Source: Gonatopus flavifemur
Taxonomy: Eukaryota; Arthropoda; Insecta; Hymenoptera; Dryinidae
Length of the DNA: 64,000 nt
Reading direction: 5' to 3'
Assembly: GCA_018340375.1 (NCBI GenBank)
Contig: JAFFJZ010000029.1
Span: 2,418,001 to 2,482,000, forward strand
The position numbers and the translations under genes are program-made. Each line of letters opens with the position of its first letter. Positions within the stretch are counted from its first letter, which is position 1. The notes beneath the pieces are model-generated. The model did not search any database. It was not told the DNA's origin and saw only the letters and a program-made list of their open reading frames with translations. Shown piece after piece: positions 27,815-56,700 of this stretch.

Positions 27815-28253
27815 ACACCGATGCGTGCAATGACGGACGTACCGAAATCAGCCCAACAGAATGTAGATGACGGGCCGAATCGGCAATGATAACAGCGAAT
27901 GCTAATCGGGGCAATTTAAAAAAACAAATATCGTTGCACTGAAAGCCGGCTGGTATTTATCCGGAGATTAGTAACGAAATCCCGCAAATCATGAAACAAG
28001 AGAAGATTATAGATAATAATCCAAGATGACGGGTATGCCCATGTTCTCATACACTCTGAAATATAGTGAATATATGAGACGAGAGTGTTTCAATGGGAAA
28101 TACTTGTAATGAGAATCCCAATGGAAGATGAATCATTTGCCCACTCATCATTCTCAAGACTCAGTTAACAAATATTGACGAAATCGTGAATTTTTTATCT
28201 ATTCATGTCAAAATTTCAACTTTCAGAAGCACCTGGGTCTTTCTCAGTAGATA

Positions 28254-29364
28254 CCCGGGAAAAAATCATCAGATCTAATCAGATCTGAGCAGATCTAAAT
28301 CGTCAGATCTGACCAGATCTGAATTTTGGTCAGATCTAAACAGATCTGAGTAGATCTGAATAGATCTAAGTAGATCTGGATAGATCTAACTAGATCTAAA
28401 CAGATCTTACTAGATCAAGATGGTTTATGGTAAATATTGTTAGATCTGATCAGATCTAAACAGTTCTGCATAAACATGGAGAAAAAAGATATGAGAAATT
28501 TTGCTATTTTCCATGCTAAAGCTGAAACAGAAAGGTTTGTAAAATTATTTTTTACATGAAAATATGGGGGATTATGAATTGTTAGCCGAATTTTACAAAG
28601 CGTATAGTGAAATTTGACTATCCAACCATAATCTTGCCATCTGATAACGGTATGACAAAAGGTCTTAATTGTGAATCTGTATATATCGATAATTACATCT
28701 AACTGAATGTTGATTCCACCACATCCAACTTATGAAATTTGATATCTGTTACCAAACGCTAATATATATATATATATAATATATATATATATAATTGAAT
28801 ATTTTTCTTAGTGTGAGTCTTCACCAAATCGCATCTGATATGCTCAAATCTAATAAAATTTCATCAGATCTGAGCGGATTTGATCAGATATAGGAGCAGA
28901 TTCAATCAGATCTGGGTAGATCTAATCAGATCTAGGATCAGATTTGATCAGATCTGAGCAGATCAAGTGAGATCTGGGAAGATCTACTGAGAATCCACCA
29001 GGTCTAATGCTGATGAGAATTGAATTTCATATTATGCAAAAGCAGATCTGAACAGATCTGAATAGATCCAATCAGATCTGAGCAGATCTGGTCAGATAGG
29101 AGGGGAAATCCAACCAAATATGATTGATCCAATGAAGAGATCTGTTCAGATCTGACTAGATCTGTTCAGATCTGACTAGATCTGTTCAGATCTGACTAGA
29201 TCTGTTCAGATCTGACTAGATCTGTTCAGATCTAGTCAGATCTAGTCATGTATGGGGTTAGATCTAATCAGATCTGATTAACCCAAAAGGAAGATCTGTT
29301 CAGATCTGATGAGATCTGATTAGATCTGATCAGATCCGATTAGATCTAATGAGTTTTTCCCGGG
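28254..29364. mobile_element. Non-autonomous element built of AGATCT palindromes
   Basis: It interrupts dispersed repeat B at a site that is empty in copy A (AGTAGATACTCATT near 23870). The ends are CCCGGGAAAAA and TTTTTCCCGGG. TA flanks each side (28252-28253 and 29365-29366); a 3-bp TAC duplication with CCGGG ends fits equally. Both arms (about 28264-28470 and 28840-29350) consist of AGATCTGA/AGATCTAA words spaced about 10 bases apart, dozens in all, including a regular 20-bp tandem near 29140-29230. The central ~370 bp is unrelated AT-rich sequence with an (AT)n run near 28763-28795. No ORF. Confidence 0.85.
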
Positions 29365-45355: not shown

Positions 45356-45427
45356 TATATTCCATGTTGATAGATATACATAATATGTATATATACAATG
45401 TACAATGTAATATCTCTATATATTATA

Positions 45428-47279
45428 CAGTGTGATTCAAAATTCCCGCACTCTTTTTTGGGAGTAGATTCCTGATGAAATTCTAAAACGATTTGTCCTT
45501 TTGCACAATGCTCTCCGACGCATAATTTCCGAGATATAATTAATTAAAGTTGACTAATTATGAGGTAGATCCATCGGTCATTCAGGAGCGTCATAACAGA
45601 ACAAGAGAGGAAGGTGCTTGCAAAGGGCGCTCATACGATCAGCTGATCGGTATAATCGATACGATTTACCAGCATACAAATTGGTAAATTTTCTATGTAG
45701 AACGATTGAATTCGTCGACACTGTGGAAAAATTGATTATTGTCATGAATTCTTATCACGATATGCTGTAGGTGAAAGTTGTAATTTCAGTAATGATTTTT
45801 ATTACGCGGACAAATGTAAAATAGTGTTATTTCGTAGGGATAGGGATTCAAGTGATAGAAAGAAGTATAACTACTCGTTTTCAATCAGAATTTTCATGTG
45901 AAGAAGGAAACATGAGAATTTTCATTCATCCGATACCCAATTTGAACGGTTTGATCAGTAAGTTTAACACAAGAGATTGGATTCCGAATCCTGTATTCTG
46001 ATTGGTCGAGAATCAATGTATGTTATATCAATCCTCGGCCGTTTCAAATGATTCTTCTGAAGAATGTGTTTTCGACTTATCCTAACCACAACATTGAACA
46101 ATGATGAATTCGTTCGAATTCACCCTTTTTACATCATTCGACGATTATAAAGGGTTTATCGATCGTTAATAACTTACTTGAGATCACTCAAGATCATTCT
46201 AGTTTAAATCAAAATCTAATTCAAATGTGTGCAGGTTCGAGCGCGTTTCTACGTTTAGAAAATGTATTCGTCCTCAAAAGGACGGATTTGGTTAATCTTC
46301 AAAGACAATTCTTTTTCCATTTGAAATAACAATATGCCCTTTGAAGTCATATGTGCTTTCAATGAAACTGTTTCGAGCTGTCACCTGATTGGTTGATTCG
46401 TATCACGAATGGTTGATTTAAGCTAAACAAACCGTATGTGATTACAATGTCAATCAAGTGCAATGATTGGGTCGTATACGATGTCACACCTCGTATTTTC
46501 GTCAAAATTGATGGATTCTGCAAGTTGAAGTAAGTTATTAACATTCGATAAACCCTTTATAATCATCGAATGATGTAAAAAGGGTGAATTCGAATAAATT
46601 CATCATTGTTCAATGTTGTGGTTGGGATAAGTCGAAAACACATTCTTCAGAAGAATCATTTGAAACGGCCGGTGATTGATATAACATACATTGATTCTCG
46701 ACCAATCAGAATACAGGATTCGGAATCCAATCTCTTGTGTTAAACTTACTAATCAAACCGTTCAAATTGGGTATCGGATGAATGAAAATTCTCATGTTTC
46801 CTTCTTTACATGGAAATTCTGATTGAAAACGAGTAGTTATACTTCTTTCTCTCACTTGAATCCCTATCCCTACGAAATAACACTATTTTACATTTGTCTG
46901 CGTAATAAAAATCATTACTGAAATTACAACTTTCACCTACAGCATATCGTGATAAGAATTCATGACAATAATCAATTTTTCCACAGTGTCGACGAATTCA
47001 ATCGTTCTACATAGAAAATTTACCAATTTGTATGCTGGTAAATCGTATCGATTATACCGATCAGCTGATCGTATGAGCGCCCTCTGCAAGCACCTTCCTC
47101 TCTTGTTCAGTTATGACGCTCCTGAATGACCGATCGATCCACCTCATAATTAGTCAACTTTAATTAATTATATCTCGGAAATTATGCGTCGGAGAGCATT
47201 GTGCAAAAGGACAAATCGTTTTAGAATTTCATCAGGAATCTACTCCCAAAGAAGAGTGCGGGAATTTTGAATCACCCTG
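45428..47279. mobile_element. 1852-bp foldback element with ~750-bp arms
   Basis: TA flanks (45426-45427 and 47280-47281). The ends are CAGTGTGATTCAAAATTCCC and its near reverse complement, ATTTTGAATCACCCTG. The left arm is 45428 to about 46178 and the right arm about 46531 to 47279, roughly 95% complementary. The ~350-bp centre is unique and has no ORF. The ends resemble Tc1/mariner-type termini, so it is probably mobilised in trans. Confidence 0.9.
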
Positions 47280-47344
47280 TATACATATATAAGAACACTT
47301 ATAAATTGGTGATTGAACTGAAAAGTTACTGAATGGGAACTCTA

Positions 47345-48140: not shown

Positions 48141-49807
48141 TTAAGTCATCGGGATAGATCGAATAATCGGTAGTTGCCGCCCGCCGTGGTTGATTTGATC
48201 AGTTTCGGTTTTGATGTCCACAGGGAGGAAACTTAATTTTCCTATTGGTCGGACGTATTCGGACCGAGCAGTCTTAATTTCTACAACACGAACGATGCCA
48301 TCTTGGCCGGGGTAGCAAGCAATGATTCGTTCGAGTTCCCAGTGACTTGCAGGGAGAGATGGGTTTCGTAATGGAACCATTCGTCCCACGCAGGCTAGAT
48401 TTTGCGAAACGCGCCACTTAGGGCGTTGTTGGAGGGTGTGCAGGTAATTCTTTGACCAGTACTGCCAAAAACCTTCTGAGATACGCTGTACGAGTTGCCA
48501 TCGGGACAACCGATTTTCGTCAAGTCTGAGCACGCTAGGTTCTGGGATCGAACGTAATGGGGCTCCTATCAGAAAATGACCTGGTGTTAAAGCATGGTAG
48601 TCATCGAAATTCTCAGACACAGCGGCAATCGGTCGTGAATTCAAGCACGCTTCGATGCGACAGAGTAGGGTAGTCATTTCTCCGTACGAGAGAGTATGAG
48701 TGCCAGTACATCTTTTCAAGTGATATTGCACACTCCGCACTCCAGCCTCCCATAGGCCACCAAAATGCGGAGCGGATGGAGGAATAAAGTGCCACTCTAC
48801 TCTCTCGCTAGCTAGCTTATTCAAAAGGTTTGAGTCTGAAATGGCAGCGTGGAATGCTTCATCCATTTCGCGGCTTGCGCTTTGGAACGTGGTTCCATTA
48901 TCCGAATAAACGTGAGTGGGTACCCCACGGGGAGATGTCAATCGGATGAAAGCCGCAGTGAATGCAGCAGAAGTGTATCCATCGACGACTTCAAGGTGAA
49001 TCGCTTTGGTTGTCATGCAACCGAAGACGCCGATGTAGGATTTGTAAGATTTGGAACCACGTCCCGATCGCGAGCGCACGAGGATGGGTCCGGCATAATC
49101 TATGCCAACATGTACGAAGGCGCGAGAAGTTCGATTGACTCTAAAATCTGGGAGTTGACCCATAAGTTCTGTCGGTATTTTTGCAGATTCACGGCTGCAA
49201 ATTGTGCAGCGATACAAGACTGATCGCACGGTACTTCGCGCTCGCAGAATCCAATATTTCTCTCTGAGTAGCGTAAGAATTAAAGTGGGTCCGGCGTGTA
49301 GGTTTTGGATATGGTAGTGAGAGATTATAAGAGACAGCAGGAAGTGGTTTTTGAGAATAACTGGATGTTTTGCAGTGTCTGGAAGATTCGAATGACGGAG
49401 TCTACCTTCCACTCTAATAAGATTATTCCTGTCCAGATATGGATTGAGGCTAGCTGAAGAACTCCTCTTTTGTATGGGAGAATTATTCTTGAGGTGATGA
49501 AGTTCTTCGGGGAATAATTCGCTTGCATATATTTTAACCAATAGATTTCGGCCTTTTCGATTTCATGTGCCTGGATGGACCTTGATGGATAAATCTTGTC
49601 GGTAGGTTTAATTAACCCACTGTTGGGAGAAGTTTTCTTCTTGGTTGGAGTGGGACAGCGATGAAGGTATCCCGTAATTCGAAGGAGCTTTGGCCAGGAT
49701 GAATAACGCTTTGCAAGATCCCAATGTTCATAAGCAGCTAAATTGCTAACGACCGTAGCGCGCTGTTCTTCTAAAAGAATTTCTGGTGCGATTGGAGGTT
49801 GTTCAGT
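48141..49807 (-). pseudogene. Pao pol, integrase part (downstream of the insertion)
   Basis: Resumes at the target-site duplication with PPIAPEILLEEQRATVVSNL (49800) in one frame. A frameshift near 49525 leads to the 48141-49541 frame. In that frame a zinc-binding H-H-C-C type region lies near LHAGPTLILTLLREKYWI to CTICSRESA. The core follows: VGIDYAGP (first Asp), VYSDNGTTFQ (second Asp) and GGLWEAGVRSVQ (Glu). The C-terminal part includes RWQLVQRISEGFW and WELERIIACYPGQDGIVRVVEIKT, the extension usual in BEL/Pao. The integrase core itself is undamaged. Confidence 0.92.
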
Positions 49808-50397
49808 AGGGTGGGCCGAAAAACCAAAATTTTTGGAATCCGGAACGTAATAGTGCGGAAAAGACGGTCTGGAGGAACGCAAATCGAATGGAAAAAAGAT
49901 CATTCAAATCGGTCAACATTTGACCCTCGCGCATCGAGCTTGAAGTTTTTCAGTTTTTACAATATTTAGCGAATGCAATATATTTAGTCGGAAAAATTTA
50001 TATTTCACTATTTAGTATGGAGAAATAATTGTTGAGTATATAAGAGAGGTTGCAATCCCTCATAACTCCGCAGGAAAGCTTCAAATCAAAGAATGCCAAA
50101 GGAAAAATCGAATGAATTTTCGTGAGGATTGGGCTCCTGAAGAAATTGAAATTATCTTAAAATCATCTTGTATACAATATAAAAGTTCTTGCTCGTGCAG
50201 CTCTCGGCTCGACTTGAATATCTTCAAGCGACTCAAAACTCACCACGGGAAGGTAGCTACACTTCGAGTTCCGCCCACACCATTCCCAACCAACCATCCA
50301 AAAAGGGCATACATGTTTTTTCTTTATTTTTATGTTTTTTATTTTTTCATGAGGGCATACATAACATACATATTATTGAATATGTAATGGTTTATTG

Positions 50398-52757
50398 TCA
50401 ATTGAAAGTGATCTTCCACTCCCAAACAGGGAATTGTGCCTCGTTCCAGAACAAAGGCATGCTTTTTCTGGACATCAAAGTGGTTCGGATAAAACCATCC
50501 CTATTCTTATACCCAACAACTTTTCCTGCTGCCCCTGTCACCAGCTTAACACAGCGCTCAACTGATTGAGTATGGCAAGGAAATCCTTCAACATCCCAAT
50601 CTGGAATAGATGTAGATTCTATCTGCGAGATTATGTATTCAGTTGAGACATAGCGTAAAAGGGGTGGCGAAGCCGGTTTAGTGGAGTTCCAGTCGATACA
50701 TTGTGAATAGTCTATCGCAGCAAAGTTGATTTTTGGGATCAAAAAATCACGAACTGGCTTCTTTTGCTTTGGATTTGCTGTTCTTGCCTCAATTATTTTT
50801 TTCAGGCAAAGTTCTCTAATATCTCTCCTGTCATCCATTGTCATTGATAAGAGTAAGTTCTCTGGATGAGCGAAGTACGCGTTGCGTTGGATAACAGGAT
50901 CTATAATTTGGAGGAGATTTTCAGGTAAGTACCTTGAGGTTTCGATAACCTTGAACACATGTTTAGGCCCGTCTAGGATAGAACTATTCTTCTTGATGGC
51001 GAACCATGCAGGCATATAACAAGTAAGTATGAACCTCACTATCTGTATCAGTTCATTGGATTGATTGGTTGTTGATACGTATAACCTAAGAGTTCGATTT
51101 GCAGCTGTGAGCCACCGAGCATGACACAGCGGACCAGGATCTGAAACAGCTAAATCTGCAGGACAGTATCCTGATTTGACAGCCGAAACGATATTCAACA
51201 GATACTTCTGATCCTTGCTAAGTTGTTTGAAAATTTCCTCATCAAGAGATGGGATGTCACAATCAATGCTATCGAACTCAACGACGGGTAAACTTTCGCA
51301 CCCCACAAGACATTTACCAATTGAACCAGAAAACGATTTTGGACCTGTAGTTTGGCCATCTAAATGCTCAAATAAATGTCTCAATGGGAGCTCATTAAAA
51401 TGTAACAAGCAAATGATCCATTGGAGTGGTCTTCTGAGAATCATTTCTATATTGTGAATTACACCATTCTTCCATCCAGTATTAGTTGCTGTTCCATCAC
51501 AACCAATTACATCTAAGTCCTCGAGAGAAATCTTACATTCATTTAGATGTGACATAATGCTATCAGTAATATTTCTTCCAGAGCCTGACACATTGGAGAC
51601 ACATGACTGATGTAATTAGACCCTGGCTCTTGAATCAATGAAATGTGTTCCTCTTTCACCAGCCTGCGAAAGTTCTTGGCATGCATTGTTTCAACAACCA
51701 GAGTATCATCTTTCCTGCCATCAAAGTATAACCCTCGAACGATAATATCAATACTATTCTGTAAGTTGGATCTTACACGTGTCTTTGCTCTCCTTAATTT
51801 ATTCTTGTCAATAACGAGTGATTTGTCAGATCCATTCATAATCCCTATATCCTTAAGAACACTCGAGGCCATTGCTGCTGTTGCCCTGTCAGAAATTCCG
51901 TACCTATCGCTCACTAACGCAGTCAATTTGAGTGGAATCCTCATCTGTGTGCTTGTTGATGGCTTATATTTTTTTACAGGGACAAAAGTTTCATCTCCAT
52001 GATTCTCTTCAGATTCAGGCTCTTGGTGTTCGACTTTTGCTGGAGTCGGTTTAAGAGAACTATCGTGCAAGTCTATTTCATCTGAGTTCATGACATGGAA
52101 TTGGCACGAAGATTCTGACCTTTTTCTATCGAAGTGAGTGAGTTCTCGCTCTTGCCTCAGAAGTCTTTTGGTAAGTCTCGTAGATTCTGTTTTGTCAACT
52201 TGTCCTATTTTTCCAAATCTCCCATTCCTTTGTCCGTACATAAATCTAATTTCAAGAAATGGAATTTTCTTTGATTTCTCACAATCACAATCAATGGAAA
52301 TTGGACATGTACAACTTTGAATGCTGTTTTTACAGATGCAGTTCCGAGTCATTGGACATTCACAGTGTGCTACATCGAAAAGTTGTACAGCTTCCTTCTT
52401 GAACTTTCTCAGCTTAACTTTAAAACTTTCTTTTTCTTTGTCCCTGGCGTAAGATTTCCGTATTCTGTAATATGAATCGTGGTATGATTTTATCATTTGT
52501 ATGATTCTTGTTTCTTTAACTGTAGGGACAGTTACTAAATCGTACTGAGCCATAATTTTTCGTGCAACTGCTCCAGCTACAGTGGAAAAACTGACTGTTT
52601 CGTAATTGACTTCCGAAGACAGGTCAAATCGTTCTTCAAAACAACATCTCAAAACTTCTTTGTACGTAGGAAGTTGGGAAGTTGGTAGGTCCTTTGGACT
52701 CCCGAAAATTGGACAAGAAAATACTTTCCGACCCATGTGTTTCCTTGGCGCTTCCAT
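50398..52757 (-). CDS. Family-1 protein, candidate transposase, one frameshift
   Basis: Two overlapping frames (51543-52757, 404 residues; 50398-51591, 397 residues) form one ~790-residue gene. The N-terminal half starts MEAPRKHMGRKVFSCPIFGS. It has a helical Lys/Arg-rich region around residues 110-160 and then a dense Cys cluster (CECPM, CICK, CTCP, CDCEK near 145-180), probably zinc binding. Next are an acidic linker and KLTALVSDRYGISDRATAAM. The C-terminal half has LDVIGCDGTATNTGWKNG, LLHFNELPLRHLFEHLDG, DPGPLCHARWLTAANRT, FPCHTQSVERCVKLVTGAAG and NRDGFIRTTLMSRK. Asp in GCDG, a conserved His and later Glu/Asp residues could make a DDE-like site. The frames join if one A is restored in CCAATG near 51590; the paralogue at 3.85 kb has CCAAAT there. 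Transposase function is inferred from the TIRs. Confidence 0.8.
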
Positions 52758-53129
52758 CTTTCAATGATGGGAAAGCCTTGGAACTACGAAATGTACCCAA
52801 TATAATCAGATGGAATGAAGGCCTACTACGCTCTAAATACCGTGAATATCAGTGAAAAAATAACAAAGTTGTTGAGGTAGTAATTTCTGGATCTCTACGA
52901 AAGAAGATCAGCAACCGCCAGTATGACCGCTTGCTAAAACAAATGAAGTACTTGCTGGAAAAAATGCAACGCCTCTGCTGTGCGCGTATATTTCTGTGCC
53001 GTTCGCGTCACGTGAGTGAGGTAAGCAGTCGATCCGAATATCTGAGCAGTACACTTCTGATCAGCGTGTCCACAACGGATACGAGAACTTACGCATACGG
53101 TGCACACGCAAAACTTCTATATTGCGTAT

Positions 53130-53192
53130 ATGTATGTTTGTATGTATGTATATTATATGTATGTATATATATATATATTTATTTATTTATTC
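53130..53192. repeat. TATG/AT microsatellite
   Basis: Runs of TATGTATG, ATATATAT and TTTATTTAT immediately before the MITE. Confidence 0.8.
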
Positions 53193-53203
53193 ATACATTA
53201 ATC

Positions 53204-53461
53204 CAGGGGGCATAAACTGAAATATAAAATTTTCAGGACTGAATGTGACGCTCTCCAGTGTAGATTAGTGAAAGTTCGAATGGAATGCAGGGAGTGGGGG
53301 TATCAAGTGAATTGATGTTGTATTACCAACACAAGTATACTTGTGTTGGTGATTATAGGTGATACCCCCACTCCCTGCATTCCATTCGAACTTTCACTAA
53401 TCCACACTTGAGAGCGACACATTCAGTTCTGAAAATTTCATATTTCAGTTCATGCCCCCTG
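53204..53461. mobile_element. 258-bp hAT-like MITE with perfect central palindrome
   Basis: The ends are CAGGGGGCATAAACTG and CAGTTCATGCCCCCTG. The 8-bp duplication CATTAATC is exact (53196-53203 and 53462-53469). CAG ends and an 8-bp duplication are typical of hAT. The arms of ~115 bp are nearly complementary, and the centre is a perfect 26-bp palindrome at 53325-53350 (half-site ACCAACACAAGTA). Confidence 0.9.
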
Positions 53462-53719
53462 CATTAATCCAACACTATCAACTATGTTTGTATGCTTGAC
53501 AATCATTTTCTGACACCGAATAATGGAATTTAAACTTTTTCGAGAAAATATATTGCATATTGAAAATTGTAAAAACTGAGAAACTTCAAGTTCGATGCGC
53601 GCGGGTCAAATGTTGACCGATTTGAATGATCTTTTTTTCATTCGATTTGTGTTCCTCTAGACCGTCTCCTCCGCACTATTACGTTCCGGATTTCAAAAAT
53701 TTTGGTTTTTCGGCCCACC

Positions 53720-56700
53720 CTATCGTTCAGTTGGGGGATCTATCTCAAAATTCTTCAGCCACGAAGGTCCGGCCCACCAGAGATTAAGAGTTGATAATTC
53801 TTGTGCAGGTAAGCCGCGGGAGGCGCAATCAACCGGATTCTCGGATGTAGAAACATGACGCCATGTTGCATTTGGAAGGAGCGTTTGAATTGTGGCAACT
53901 CGATTGGCGACAAATGTTTTCCATCGAGATGGAGACTGATTGAGCCAAGCTAATGTGATTGTGGAGTCGGTCCAACAATGACATTTGAAGTTCGAGATAG
54001 GGAGAGCCTTGCGAGTATAGTTGATCAGTTTTGCCAAAAGCAAAGCAGCAGAAAGCTCCAATCGCGGAATGCTCAAAGTTTTGAGCGGAGCGACGGCAGA
54101 TTTGGCAGCAAGCAGAGAATCATGGACGGATCCGCTTATTGAGATGATTCGCAGGTGGAGTACTGCTGCATATGCAGTTGCAGATGCATCAGCAAACCCA
54201 TGAATCTCGACGCAGCTGGTATCTGAACCATACGCTATCCATCGAGGAATTTCAAGTTGTTCGAAATAAGGTAAACTTTCAAGGTATTTTTGCCATTGAG
54301 TCAGTGAATCGAGTGGGATAGGATCATTCCAATCACATTTGAACAGCCACAATTTTTGCATGAGAATTTTCGCTACGATTACAACGGGAGTAACCCATCC
54401 AAGTGGGTCAAACAGCCTTGCAATATTAGATAATATAGTCTGCTTGGTATTTCCGGCAGTGGATGACCGGGTTACTCTGAATTGAAAGTTGTCGCGATTA
54501 GAAATCCACGCAATTCCGAGAACTTTCAGTTGGTTGTCGGAATCTTGTGTATTCATGGATTTCGTTTCGGCAAGACCATGATCGGATGGATCGATGTCTT
54601 CTAACAAGCTTGGACAGTTACTTGCCCACTTTCGCAAGCGGAAATGTCCCTTTTCGAGTAAGGCGACAAGTTGATGCCAGGTGGCGATGGCTAATTGACG
54701 ATCGTCAGCACCAAAAAGACAATCGTCAACACAGAATTGATCCAATAGAACCGGCGAGGCGAGGGGAAATTGTGGTCCCTCGTCACACGCGAGTTGTTTT
54801 AACACGTGTAACGCTAAATAGGGTGCGGATGCTGTGCCGTACGCTATGGTCAGCAATTGGTATTCTTCAATCGGTTCGGAGGGGGATTCACGCCAAAGAA
54901 TGCGTTGATATTCGACATCATTGACGTGCATAGAAATTTGTCTATGCATTTTTTCGATATCGGCGGCATGAACACACCGGGGAAAACGCCATTTGATTAA
55001 TATAGACGCTGCTTCGGTTTGGAGTTTTGGTCCAACTAGGAGATGGTCGTTAAGTGAAGTACCATTCGAACTACGAGAGGAAGCGTTAAAGACAACCCGC
55101 AACCGAGTTGTTGCGCTGCTGCTTCGATATACTGTATGGTGTGGGATGTAATAGACTTGATTTGGATAGCGTTGTGTCGGGTTTGAGACTTTTCTCATAT
55201 GGCCCATTTTTTCATATTCAGAGAGGAATAATCTATATTCGCTGGCTAGAGCGGGATTGCGTTCTAAGCGCTTTTCCGTGGTGAGAAGGCTGCGAACAGC
55301 AGCGGGGCGCGAATCGCCAATATCGATTGATGGATCGTGTTCAAATGGTAATTCAACCACATATCGTCCATCTGAGGAACGGGAATGCGTTTTTTCGAAG
55401 TGACTCTCACATTGTTGCTCTTCGACACTAAGACATTTAGTTGGTGGGATAGCTTCGAGTTCCCAGAAACGGCAAACATCGCTATCTAAGGTTCCAAGAA
55501 TGGTTTGATGGTGAATATGGAATGTTGGAATGGCGGGAGTGGAAGGAGAACCAATAGGTCCTGTCAAAATCCAGCCAAAGGCCGTATTTTGCGCGAACGG
55601 TTCATTCTTGGAGCCATGACGCACGCCTTCACGTATGATTTGACTATATAATTCACTTCCAATGAGAATATCAACCGATTCAGAACTCATTGGGTCTCGA
55701 TCTGCGAGTGATAGCCCGATAACGTGCGGCCAATTTGGTTTCGTGTTGACTCTAGTTGGAATATATTTCGTAAGTGATTTCATAAGGAGAGCTGTAGTTG
55801 AATCAACCGGTTTGTCAACAGTTGTAGGGCTTATTAGAAGTGACGCGGAATAACGAGTCGGTGTTGTTACATCTCCGACTCCGGTGACAATCGTTGAACA
55901 TTTATCTTTTATTGAACGAAGATCTTGCGCAATCTTTTCAGTTATCAAATTAACAACAGATCCAGGATCGATTAACGCCCGGACTCGGACTGAGCGACCT
56001 TGTGGTGACCGTAAAATAACATGCGCGGTAGCTAGCAAAATTCCCGTACGAGGTATTGATGCTTTCGAAAGACAATGAGATGCGAGAGGAGTATCAACTT
56101 GAGTTGAAGTACTAGCGAGATTTGGTGGTTGAGGATCACTACGAGGTTGCTCAGTTTTTTCTGGGAAATGTAAGAGCGTATGGTGTTTCCTTTGGCATGT
56201 TCTACACAAGCGCGTATTAGTACATGCGGTGACGGAATGTTTTGTACTAAAACAATTGATACAACGTTTGCTTCGTTTAATGTAGTCATATTGCTGTGAT
56301 GGCGATTGATTTAAAAACGCAGTACATTGATATAATAAATGAGCCGTGTTACATATTGGACAACTTACATTCGTAGTTGTAGCAGCGTGTGTTGGAAAAG
56401 ATTTAGTTTTCGCGGGTTGTGTCGACTGGTTGTTTTTTTCAGTTTTCACATTAGTCTGCGGGAGAACTTCTAGTGCTCTAATCCGAGATTCGATGGATTT
56501 ATCAAGGGCTCGATAATTTGGCATATTGACTGAACTACCTAGATGAAATTCCCATGCCTTTCGCGACGCTTTATCGAGTCTTTGAGTTACCAAGAAGACT
56601 ATCATATCATCCGATTGGTCAACGGGTCGGCCTAAATTTTTTAGCGCTTCGATTGACATATTGGTTTTATCTCGTAATTCCTGAAGATCTTTGGCAGTTT

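What the first reader, a model, noticed from the sequence alone, without database searches (positions are those of the whole stretch)
49808..53724. Complete unclassified transposon: ~200-bp TIRs, 7-8 bp duplication and a single large unknown gene
The ends, the duplicated target and the empty-site reading frame (Pao pol) are all visible, so this is a bounded mobile unit and not just a repeated gene. The gene has a Cys cluster and the motifs GCDGT, LLHFNELPLRHL and FPCHTQSVERCVKLV, which I cannot assign to hAT, P, MULE, Merlin, piggyBac or Tc1/mariner. Members of this protein family appear, as I recall, in many arthropods as uncharacterised proteins. If the TIR association holds, they encode the transposase of an undescribed superfamily or a very diverged branch.
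Basis: partly seen in the sequence, partly recalled or inferred. Interest (0 to 1): 0.88.

Follow-up and report, generated by a model that had tools for sequence, protein, structure and literature searches.

The report
Diverged hAT-like jumping gene family
This is a real cut-and-paste jumping gene with long mirror-image ends, whose mobility enzyme looks structurally like the hAT (Hermes) enzymes but is so diverged that standard family models miss it.

Summary
The element spans 49807-53722, with TIRs of 207 columns at 89.9% identity and 8-bp flanks TTGTTCAG/TCGTTCAG. The four other Pao copies fetched, of ten other matching places, are uninterrupted there.

TIRs and gene belong together. Of 21 own-subfamily copies, 12 have both ends placed: 9 exact 8-bp duplications, 2 with one mismatch, 1 with none. 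Subfamilies 53-60% identical in protein have their own long TIRs; 6 of 8 copies show exact 8-bp duplications and 7 of 8 intact 759-777-aa genes.

No Pfam hAT or BED domain was found and the TIRs are long. I call it a deeply diverged hAT-like lineage. Repbase and Dfam were not searched, so "undescribed" is untested.

The parts
49807..53722 (.). whole element, TAGGGTGGGCC...GGCCCACCCTA
   Evidence: same ends in sister copies
49807..50012 (+). left TIR
   Evidence: 207 columns, 89.9% identity to the reverse complement of the right TIR
53519..53722 (-). right TIR
49799..49806 (.). left copy of the target duplication, TTGTTCAG
   Evidence: present once in the empty sites L050-L052
53723..53730 (.). 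right copy of the target duplication, TCGTTCAG (one mismatch)
50398..52757 (-). transposase gene, one frameshift; frames 51543-52757 (404 aa) and 50398-51591 (397 aa)
   Evidence: homologues; intact single-frame relatives
51720..51722 (-). codon of first catalytic Asp (FDGRKDD), D340 of P0001
   Evidence: position; on strand beta-1; conserved in 191 of 192
51496..51498 (-). codon of second catalytic Asp (GCDGT), D414 of P0001
   Evidence: right after beta-4; 192 of 192
51400..51411 (-). CxxH motif (CLLH)
   Evidence: C and H each 192 of 192
51106..51120 (-). RW motif (ARWLT) in the helical insertion, candidate counterpart of Hermes R318-W319
   Evidence: R 179 and W 180 of 181 ungapped; hAT TRWNST aligns to the Hermes stretch with W319 by profile (residue number by counting)
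50557..50559 (-). codon of catalytic Glu (HTQSVER), E724 of P0001
   Evidence: on helix 721-736; 168 of 170 ungapped
52275..52364 (-). Cys cluster (CEC ... CDC), putative zinc site of the N-terminal domain
   Evidence: position; C134, C136, C159 and C161 of P0001 invariant in the 76 sequences of A1
53204..53461 (.). nested palindromic insert, later than the element, with 8-bp duplication CATTAATC (53196-53203 and 53462-53469)

Best explanation
A cut-and-paste DNA transposon whose single intronless gene encodes a DDE transposase of a deeply diverged, hAT-like lineage. The N-terminal domain (helices plus a Cys cluster) is presumed to bind the long TIRs. The RNase-H catalytic domain (D340, D414, E724 in P0001 numbering), interrupted by a long helical insertion carrying the CxxH and RW motifs, cuts at the TAGGG ends and joins them to a target across an 8-bp stagger at sites like nTnnnnAn, giving the 8-bp duplication. 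Shown here: bounded unit, duplication, empty site, gene-TIR linkage across subfamilies, conserved DDE/CxxH/RW set, predicted fold. Inferred: that the protein is active, that the N-terminal domain binds the TIRs, and that excision leaves hairpins on the flanking DNA as in Hermes.
Confidence: 0.77

Rival explanations
1. A separate DDE superfamily, sister to hAT but not part of it, with its own N-terminal domain and long TIRs, made of at least two clades (this family and the P0196 family). This overlaps with the best explanation and differs in rank.
For: No recurrent Pfam family in the 34 members of A2 (best E 0.0074 among the 25 of 30 families shown) or the 45 of A4 (best E 0.00098 among 25 of 35 shown), none of the shown ones a transposase family except single weak hits to hAT-like_RNase-H and CxC1; N-terminal domain without a solved counterpart found; long TIRs; A1 and A4 are clearly one group.
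Against: Target pattern nTnnnnAn, Hermes as best fold and A4-hAT profile similarity tie it closely to hAT; whether it lies inside or beside hAT was not tested by a tree.
Confidence: 0.35
2. A diverged MULE (Mutator-like) element: long TIRs, 8-10 bp duplication, CxxH and W are MULE features too.
Confidence: 0.1
3. A diverged P element (THAP-type transposase, 8-bp duplication).
For: P element transposase 6p5a and 6pe2 are third and fourth by Foldseek (E 3.8e-4 and 6.3e-4).
Against: No THAP domain by Pfam in the window's pieces or P0001. No P-element profile was compared: that family search did not complete.
Confidence: 0.04
4. The gene is a passenger captured inside TIRs mobilised by another, known transposase.
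For: 18 of 40 scored TIR hits had a listed gene match within 4 kb, and 22 did not.
Against: Eight stretches covering 11 of the 22 hits were fetched: L040 and L043 hold the gene; L037, L038, L039 and L044 are two-ended deleted or rearranged derivatives, L039 with a nested non-LTR retrotransposon; L041 and L042 show one end and partial element sequence. Frames of 100 aa or more in L039, L041 and L042 include no DDE transposase recognised by eye apart from a piece of this gene. Eleven hits were not examined. None of the 40 has one of the 150 scored PF05699 places within 5 kb inward. Different TIRs accompany the gene in subfamilies only 53-60% identical in protein, and the protein is itself a DDE enzyme by predicted fold.
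Confidence: 0.02

Closest known systems
hAT superfamily (Hermes, Ac, Tip100)
   Same: 8-bp duplication at nTnnnnAn, predicted DDE RNase-H fold with a long helical insertion of similar length, CxxH and RW motifs in the same order, best VIA-align match Hermes; the TAGGG start resembles hAT ends as I recall them.
   Different: No PF05699 or BED domain found, A1 profile not significantly similar to hAT, TIRs of 115-441 columns instead of 10-25 bp, own N-terminal domain with a Cys cluster.
MULE / IS256 (Muta1, ISCth4)
   Same: Long TIRs, 8-10 bp duplication, CxxH and a Trp between second D and E, helical insertion, H-to-W distance.
   Different: D2-E 310 against 136 in Muta1 and 107 in ISCth4 (D241, E348); Trp far from Glu; target preference present; no PF10551; lower fold score for ISCth4.
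P element / THAP9
   Different: No THAP domain found; Foldseek E slightly weaker than for Hermes.
P0196 family (uncharacterised proteins of snail, lobster, crab, aphids, moth; some named Cc8K15.2-like)
   Same: Homologous over 683 profile columns with DG, DTTASN, CRHH, ARW and ER at the equivalent places.
   Different: Lacks the Cys cluster; 17% identity in the profile alignment; TIRs and duplications of these elements were not examined here.

Membership tests
hAT | 8-bp target site duplication | tested here: met
   15 exact cases, 2 with one mismatch, 1 two-ended copy with none
hAT | target pattern nTnnnnAn (Hermes / Ac type) | tested here: met
   12 of 15; 9 of 9 in the own subfamily; pattern from PMC10368747 (passages)
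hAT | short TIRs of 10-25 bp | tested here: not met
   115-441 columns; definition from PMC3942097 (passages)
hAT | DDE RNase-H domain with long helical insertion, Hermes-like | tested here: met
hAT | CxxH and RW between second D and E | tested here: met
   Sequence; same order in five hAT proteins of this genome; superposition on Hermes not tested; shared with MULE
hAT | C-terminal dimerisation region PF05699 by profile | tested here: not met
   Absent from the window's pieces and P0001 at E up to 1; positive control
hAT | N-terminal BED zinc finger | tested here: not met
   No BED hit for the window's pieces or P0001; the five hAT frames of this genome show no BED hit either, so this test is weak
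hAT | significant sequence-profile similarity to hAT transposases | tested here: inconclusive
   A1 no (23.9 against shuffle maximum 24.5); sister A4 yes (52.0 against 22.6)
MULE | TIRs over 100 bp and 8-10 bp duplication | tested here: met
   definition from PMC5225508 (passages)
MULE | MULE domain PF10551 | tested here: not met
   Absent (window's pieces, P0001)
MULE | Trp close before the catalytic Glu (Muta1 W401, E419) | tested here: not met
   185 residues apart here (Muta1)
MULE | closest to MULE by sequence profile or structure | not tested
P element | THAP DNA-binding domain | tested here: not met
   No such Pfam hit in the window's pieces or P0001
P element | best fold match to P transposase | tested here: inconclusive
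   Third in Foldseek; not among the entries shown by VIA-align 2, which does not exclude it
Tc1/mariner, piggyBac, Merlin, Kolobok, Dada, Novosib | their domains, TSD lengths or profiles | not tested
   Only one mariner-like frame was compared, as a control, at shuffle level; TSD lengths of the others are recalled

The most novel reading that the evidence does not exclude
The family and its P0196 sister together form an undescribed superfamily-level lineage of animal DNA transposons, present in insects and other arthropods, a leech and a snail, that keeps hAT target choice and catalysis but has replaced the BED domain with an N-terminal domain unlike any solved one matched here, and evolved long TIRs.
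Probability: 0.35. Interest if true: 0.72.

Novelty: new variant of a known kind. Interest (0 to 1): 0.6.

Why it matters
Hundreds of proteins in public data (885 at E up to 0.001, among 7991 candidates scored; 120 listed), called uncharacterised, hypothetical or unnamed where a name was shown, or plainly misnamed in one thrips, can now be read as transposases with a defined active site, ends and target. The lineage sits near hAT with MULE-like TIRs, so it bears on how the C/DxxH group of transposases (hAT, P, MuDR, Kolobok, Dada; PMC9587614, passages) split, and intact, nearly identical copies make activity directly testable.

Tried and rejected
Passenger, MULE and P readings: see rivals. Sequence routes that gave nothing: Pfam and NCBIfam on the two gene pieces, the PDB by sequence with one piece, with profile A1 and with profile A4. 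Fold search of the N-terminal domain: nothing above noise; this does not show that the fold is new. P element chains are not among the 50 entries shown by VIA-align 2. P0179 was meant as a piggyBac control for hhalign but is a member of this family fused to a piggyBac gene, so it is no control; the mariner-like frame (named by eye) and the Pao frame scored 13.8-19.7, at shuffle level. From the conservation count I dropped 4 of 196 proteins (P0176, P0179, P0191, P0195: partial or fused). The own-subfamily copies were the 20 best-scoring other places, so they lean towards complete ones. Duplications were read by eye. The Pfam table showed 25 of 30 families and that showed 25 of 35. Paper searches for a prior description: (six motif strings) found 0 papers, and the 10 papers listed of 635 show no occurrence of Cc8K15. 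This covers open-licence PubMed Central papers only; Repbase, Dfam, bioRxiv and subscription papers were not searched.
Full report
What is there. The unit 49807-53722 begins TAGGGTGGGCC and ends GGCCCACCCTA. Its TIRs align over 207 columns at 89.9%. Besides the window, ten places in the genome match the right flank, five of them over nearly its whole length. I fetched four of these five (L050-L053). In all four both flanks align contiguously with a 6-bp overlap, and in L050-L052 the printed junction reads GGAGGTTGTTCAGTTGGGGG, i.e. one copy of the 8-mer. So the original site was most likely TTGTTCAG, and the right copy has one later change.

The window copy is damaged. Its gene has one frameshift. 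A 258-bp palindrome, 53204-53461, with CATTAATC on both sides is missing from the 9 of 20 sister copies that run cleanly across the place, so it is a later nested insertion, probably a short non-autonomous element.

Family in the genome. The host genome (636 Mb, unnamed) gave 106 matches to the C-terminal half, 104 scored of 1296 candidates, with identities in several tiers down to 53%. The 20 best other places were fetched. With the window copy, 21 were examined: 12 had both ends placed, of which 9 have exact 8-bp duplications, 2 (window, L027) have one mismatch, and 1 (L014) has none; 9 had one end only. Eight copies of other subfamilies were fetched. Six of eight (L030-L035) have exact 8-bp duplications around their own TIRs, although in L031 one end carries 3 extra bases; in L029 and L036 the outer ends were not resolved. 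The TIR alignments in the eight span 115 to 441 columns. Ends are TAGGGTGGGYCG or TAGACCGGAGCG. Seven of the eight have an uninterrupted frame of 759-777 aa; L029 is broken. L033 and L034 are 99.5% identical over 3726 bp at different sites, which means recent movement.

Gene and TIR linkage. A DNA search with the left TIR gave 40 hits, 40 scored of 394 candidates, the window's own among them and some being two ends of one element. A listed gene match lay within 4 kb inward of 18 of 40. Of the other 22, eleven were examined in eight stretches. L040 and L043 contain the gene. L037 is an internal deletion. L038 and L044, and less fully L039, are two-ended derivatives in which the gene's 5' side of the element stands in both orientations. 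L041 and L042 show one end and part of the element. L039 also carries frames that look by eye like a non-LTR retrotransposon. Frames of 100 aa or more in L039, L041 and L042 show no other DDE transposase by eye. The remaining 11 hits were not examined. None of the 40 had a hAT match (PF05699, 150 scored of 1955 candidates) within 5 kb inward.

Target choice. Fifteen exact 8-bp duplications were tabulated: T at position 2 in 14, A at position 7 in 13, both in 12; in the own subfamily both in 9 of 9. With independent frequencies of 0.32 per base the chance of 12 or more is 4.5e-10. The sample was read by eye. Hermes prefers nTnnnnAn (PMC10368747, passages).

The protein. No Pfam, NCBIfam or PDB sequence match worth the name. 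A homology search found 885 proteins at E up to 0.001 among 7991 scored, 120 listed; a second search from another subfamily found 118. Named hosts include beetles, flies, thrips, aphids and phylloxera, a moth and the leech Helobdella robusta (two clusters, on contigs of 7.4 and 5.9 Mb). In an alignment of 192 homologues the first D is kept in 191, the second D and the C and H of CxxH in 192, R and W in 179 and 180 of 181 ungapped, and E in 168 of 170 ungapped.

Sequence link to hAT. The lowest-ranked homologue, P0196 (24% identity over 38% of the query, E 6e-8), led to a sister family (194 proteins at E up to 0.001, 120 listed), named in snail, lobster, snow crab, aphids, a scale insect and a moth. 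Profiles of the two families align over 683 columns (E 2.1e-47). Five hAT transposases from this genome were taken as reference; they hit PF05699, and their profile finds Hermes at E 3e-27, with TRWNST aligned to the Hermes stretch that holds W319 (residue number by counting from the printed rows). Sister profile A4 scores 52.0 against this hAT profile over about 80 columns of the D2-CxxH stretch, against a maximum of 22.6 in 60 column shuffles and 22.2 for the reversed profile; both families together score 49.2 against 21.4; the family's own profile A1 scores 23.9 against a maximum of 24.5, i.e. nothing. Single hAT proteins score 31.5-53.2 against A4 and 17.1-25.3 against A1; the mariner-like and Pao frames score 18.0 and 19.7 against A4. 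So the sequence link is real for the sister family and only indirect for this one, and it was not compared with a link to MULE or P.

hAT or MULE. MULEs share long TIRs, 8-10 bp duplications, CxxH and the Trp (PMC5225508, passages). What separates them here is the D2-to-E distance (310 here, 324 in Hermes by recalled residue numbers, 136 in Muta1), the Trp-to-Glu distance (185, 253, 18), the target preference, and the fold score against the MULE-like ISCth4. The H-to-W distance (93) is that of Muta1 (94) rather than of Hermes (51), which speaks the other way.

How it likely works. In Hermes the His of CxxH contacts the scissile phosphate (PMC7780238, passages) and W319 positions flanking DNA (PMC5225508, passages). 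The conserved set here suggests the same chemistry: nick, hairpin on flanking DNA, and joining across 8 bp. The joining outcome is shown by the duplications; the hairpin step is inference from what I recall of Hermes.

Conclusion. A bounded transposon, mobile in the recent past judging by its relatives, of a large, diverged, hAT-like transposase lineage. It is hAT-like in mechanism; membership in hAT is not claimed, because short TIRs, PF05699 and BED were tested and not met.

Noticed in passing
53196-53469: Nested 258-bp palindrome (arms 109 nt, 94% complementary) with TIR CAGGGGGCAT and 8-bp duplication CATTAATC, possibly a hAT-type MITE inserted into this element.
   Followed up: partly
L038, L039, L044: Derivatives with two inward TIRs in which the gene's 5' side of the element stands in both orientations (fold-back), suggesting a recurrent rearrangement path in this family.
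   Followed up: partly
BFVD O92526 and proteins P0256, P0263: A protein of Bracoviriform inaniti is the second-best viral structure match (E 1.4e-3), and crab members of the sister family are named Cc8K15.2-like, a name I recall as a bracovirus gene; such transposases may sit on bracovirus segments.
   Followed up: no
P0148, P0157, P0164, P0189, P0195: Members of the family bear wrong names in public records, e.g. RNA polymerase beta', TPR 30-like, NusB and helicase mph1 in Frankliniella fusca and an ABC transporter (with that domain, so probably fused) in Araneus.
   Followed up: no
P0179: In Brassicogethes aeneus an annotated protein fuses a member of this family with a piggyBac transposase gene (PF13843), probably a nested insertion misannotated as one gene.
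   Followed up: no
L028:6474-7541: A 355-aa frame that looks by eye like a mariner transposase lies next to or inside a copy of the element.
   Followed up: no
28241-29357: A long array of about 10-bp units around AGATCT lies elsewhere in the window.
   Followed up: no
45424-47283: Inverted repeat with 756-nt arms at 97% and 348 nt between them, another likely fold-back mobile element.
   Followed up: no
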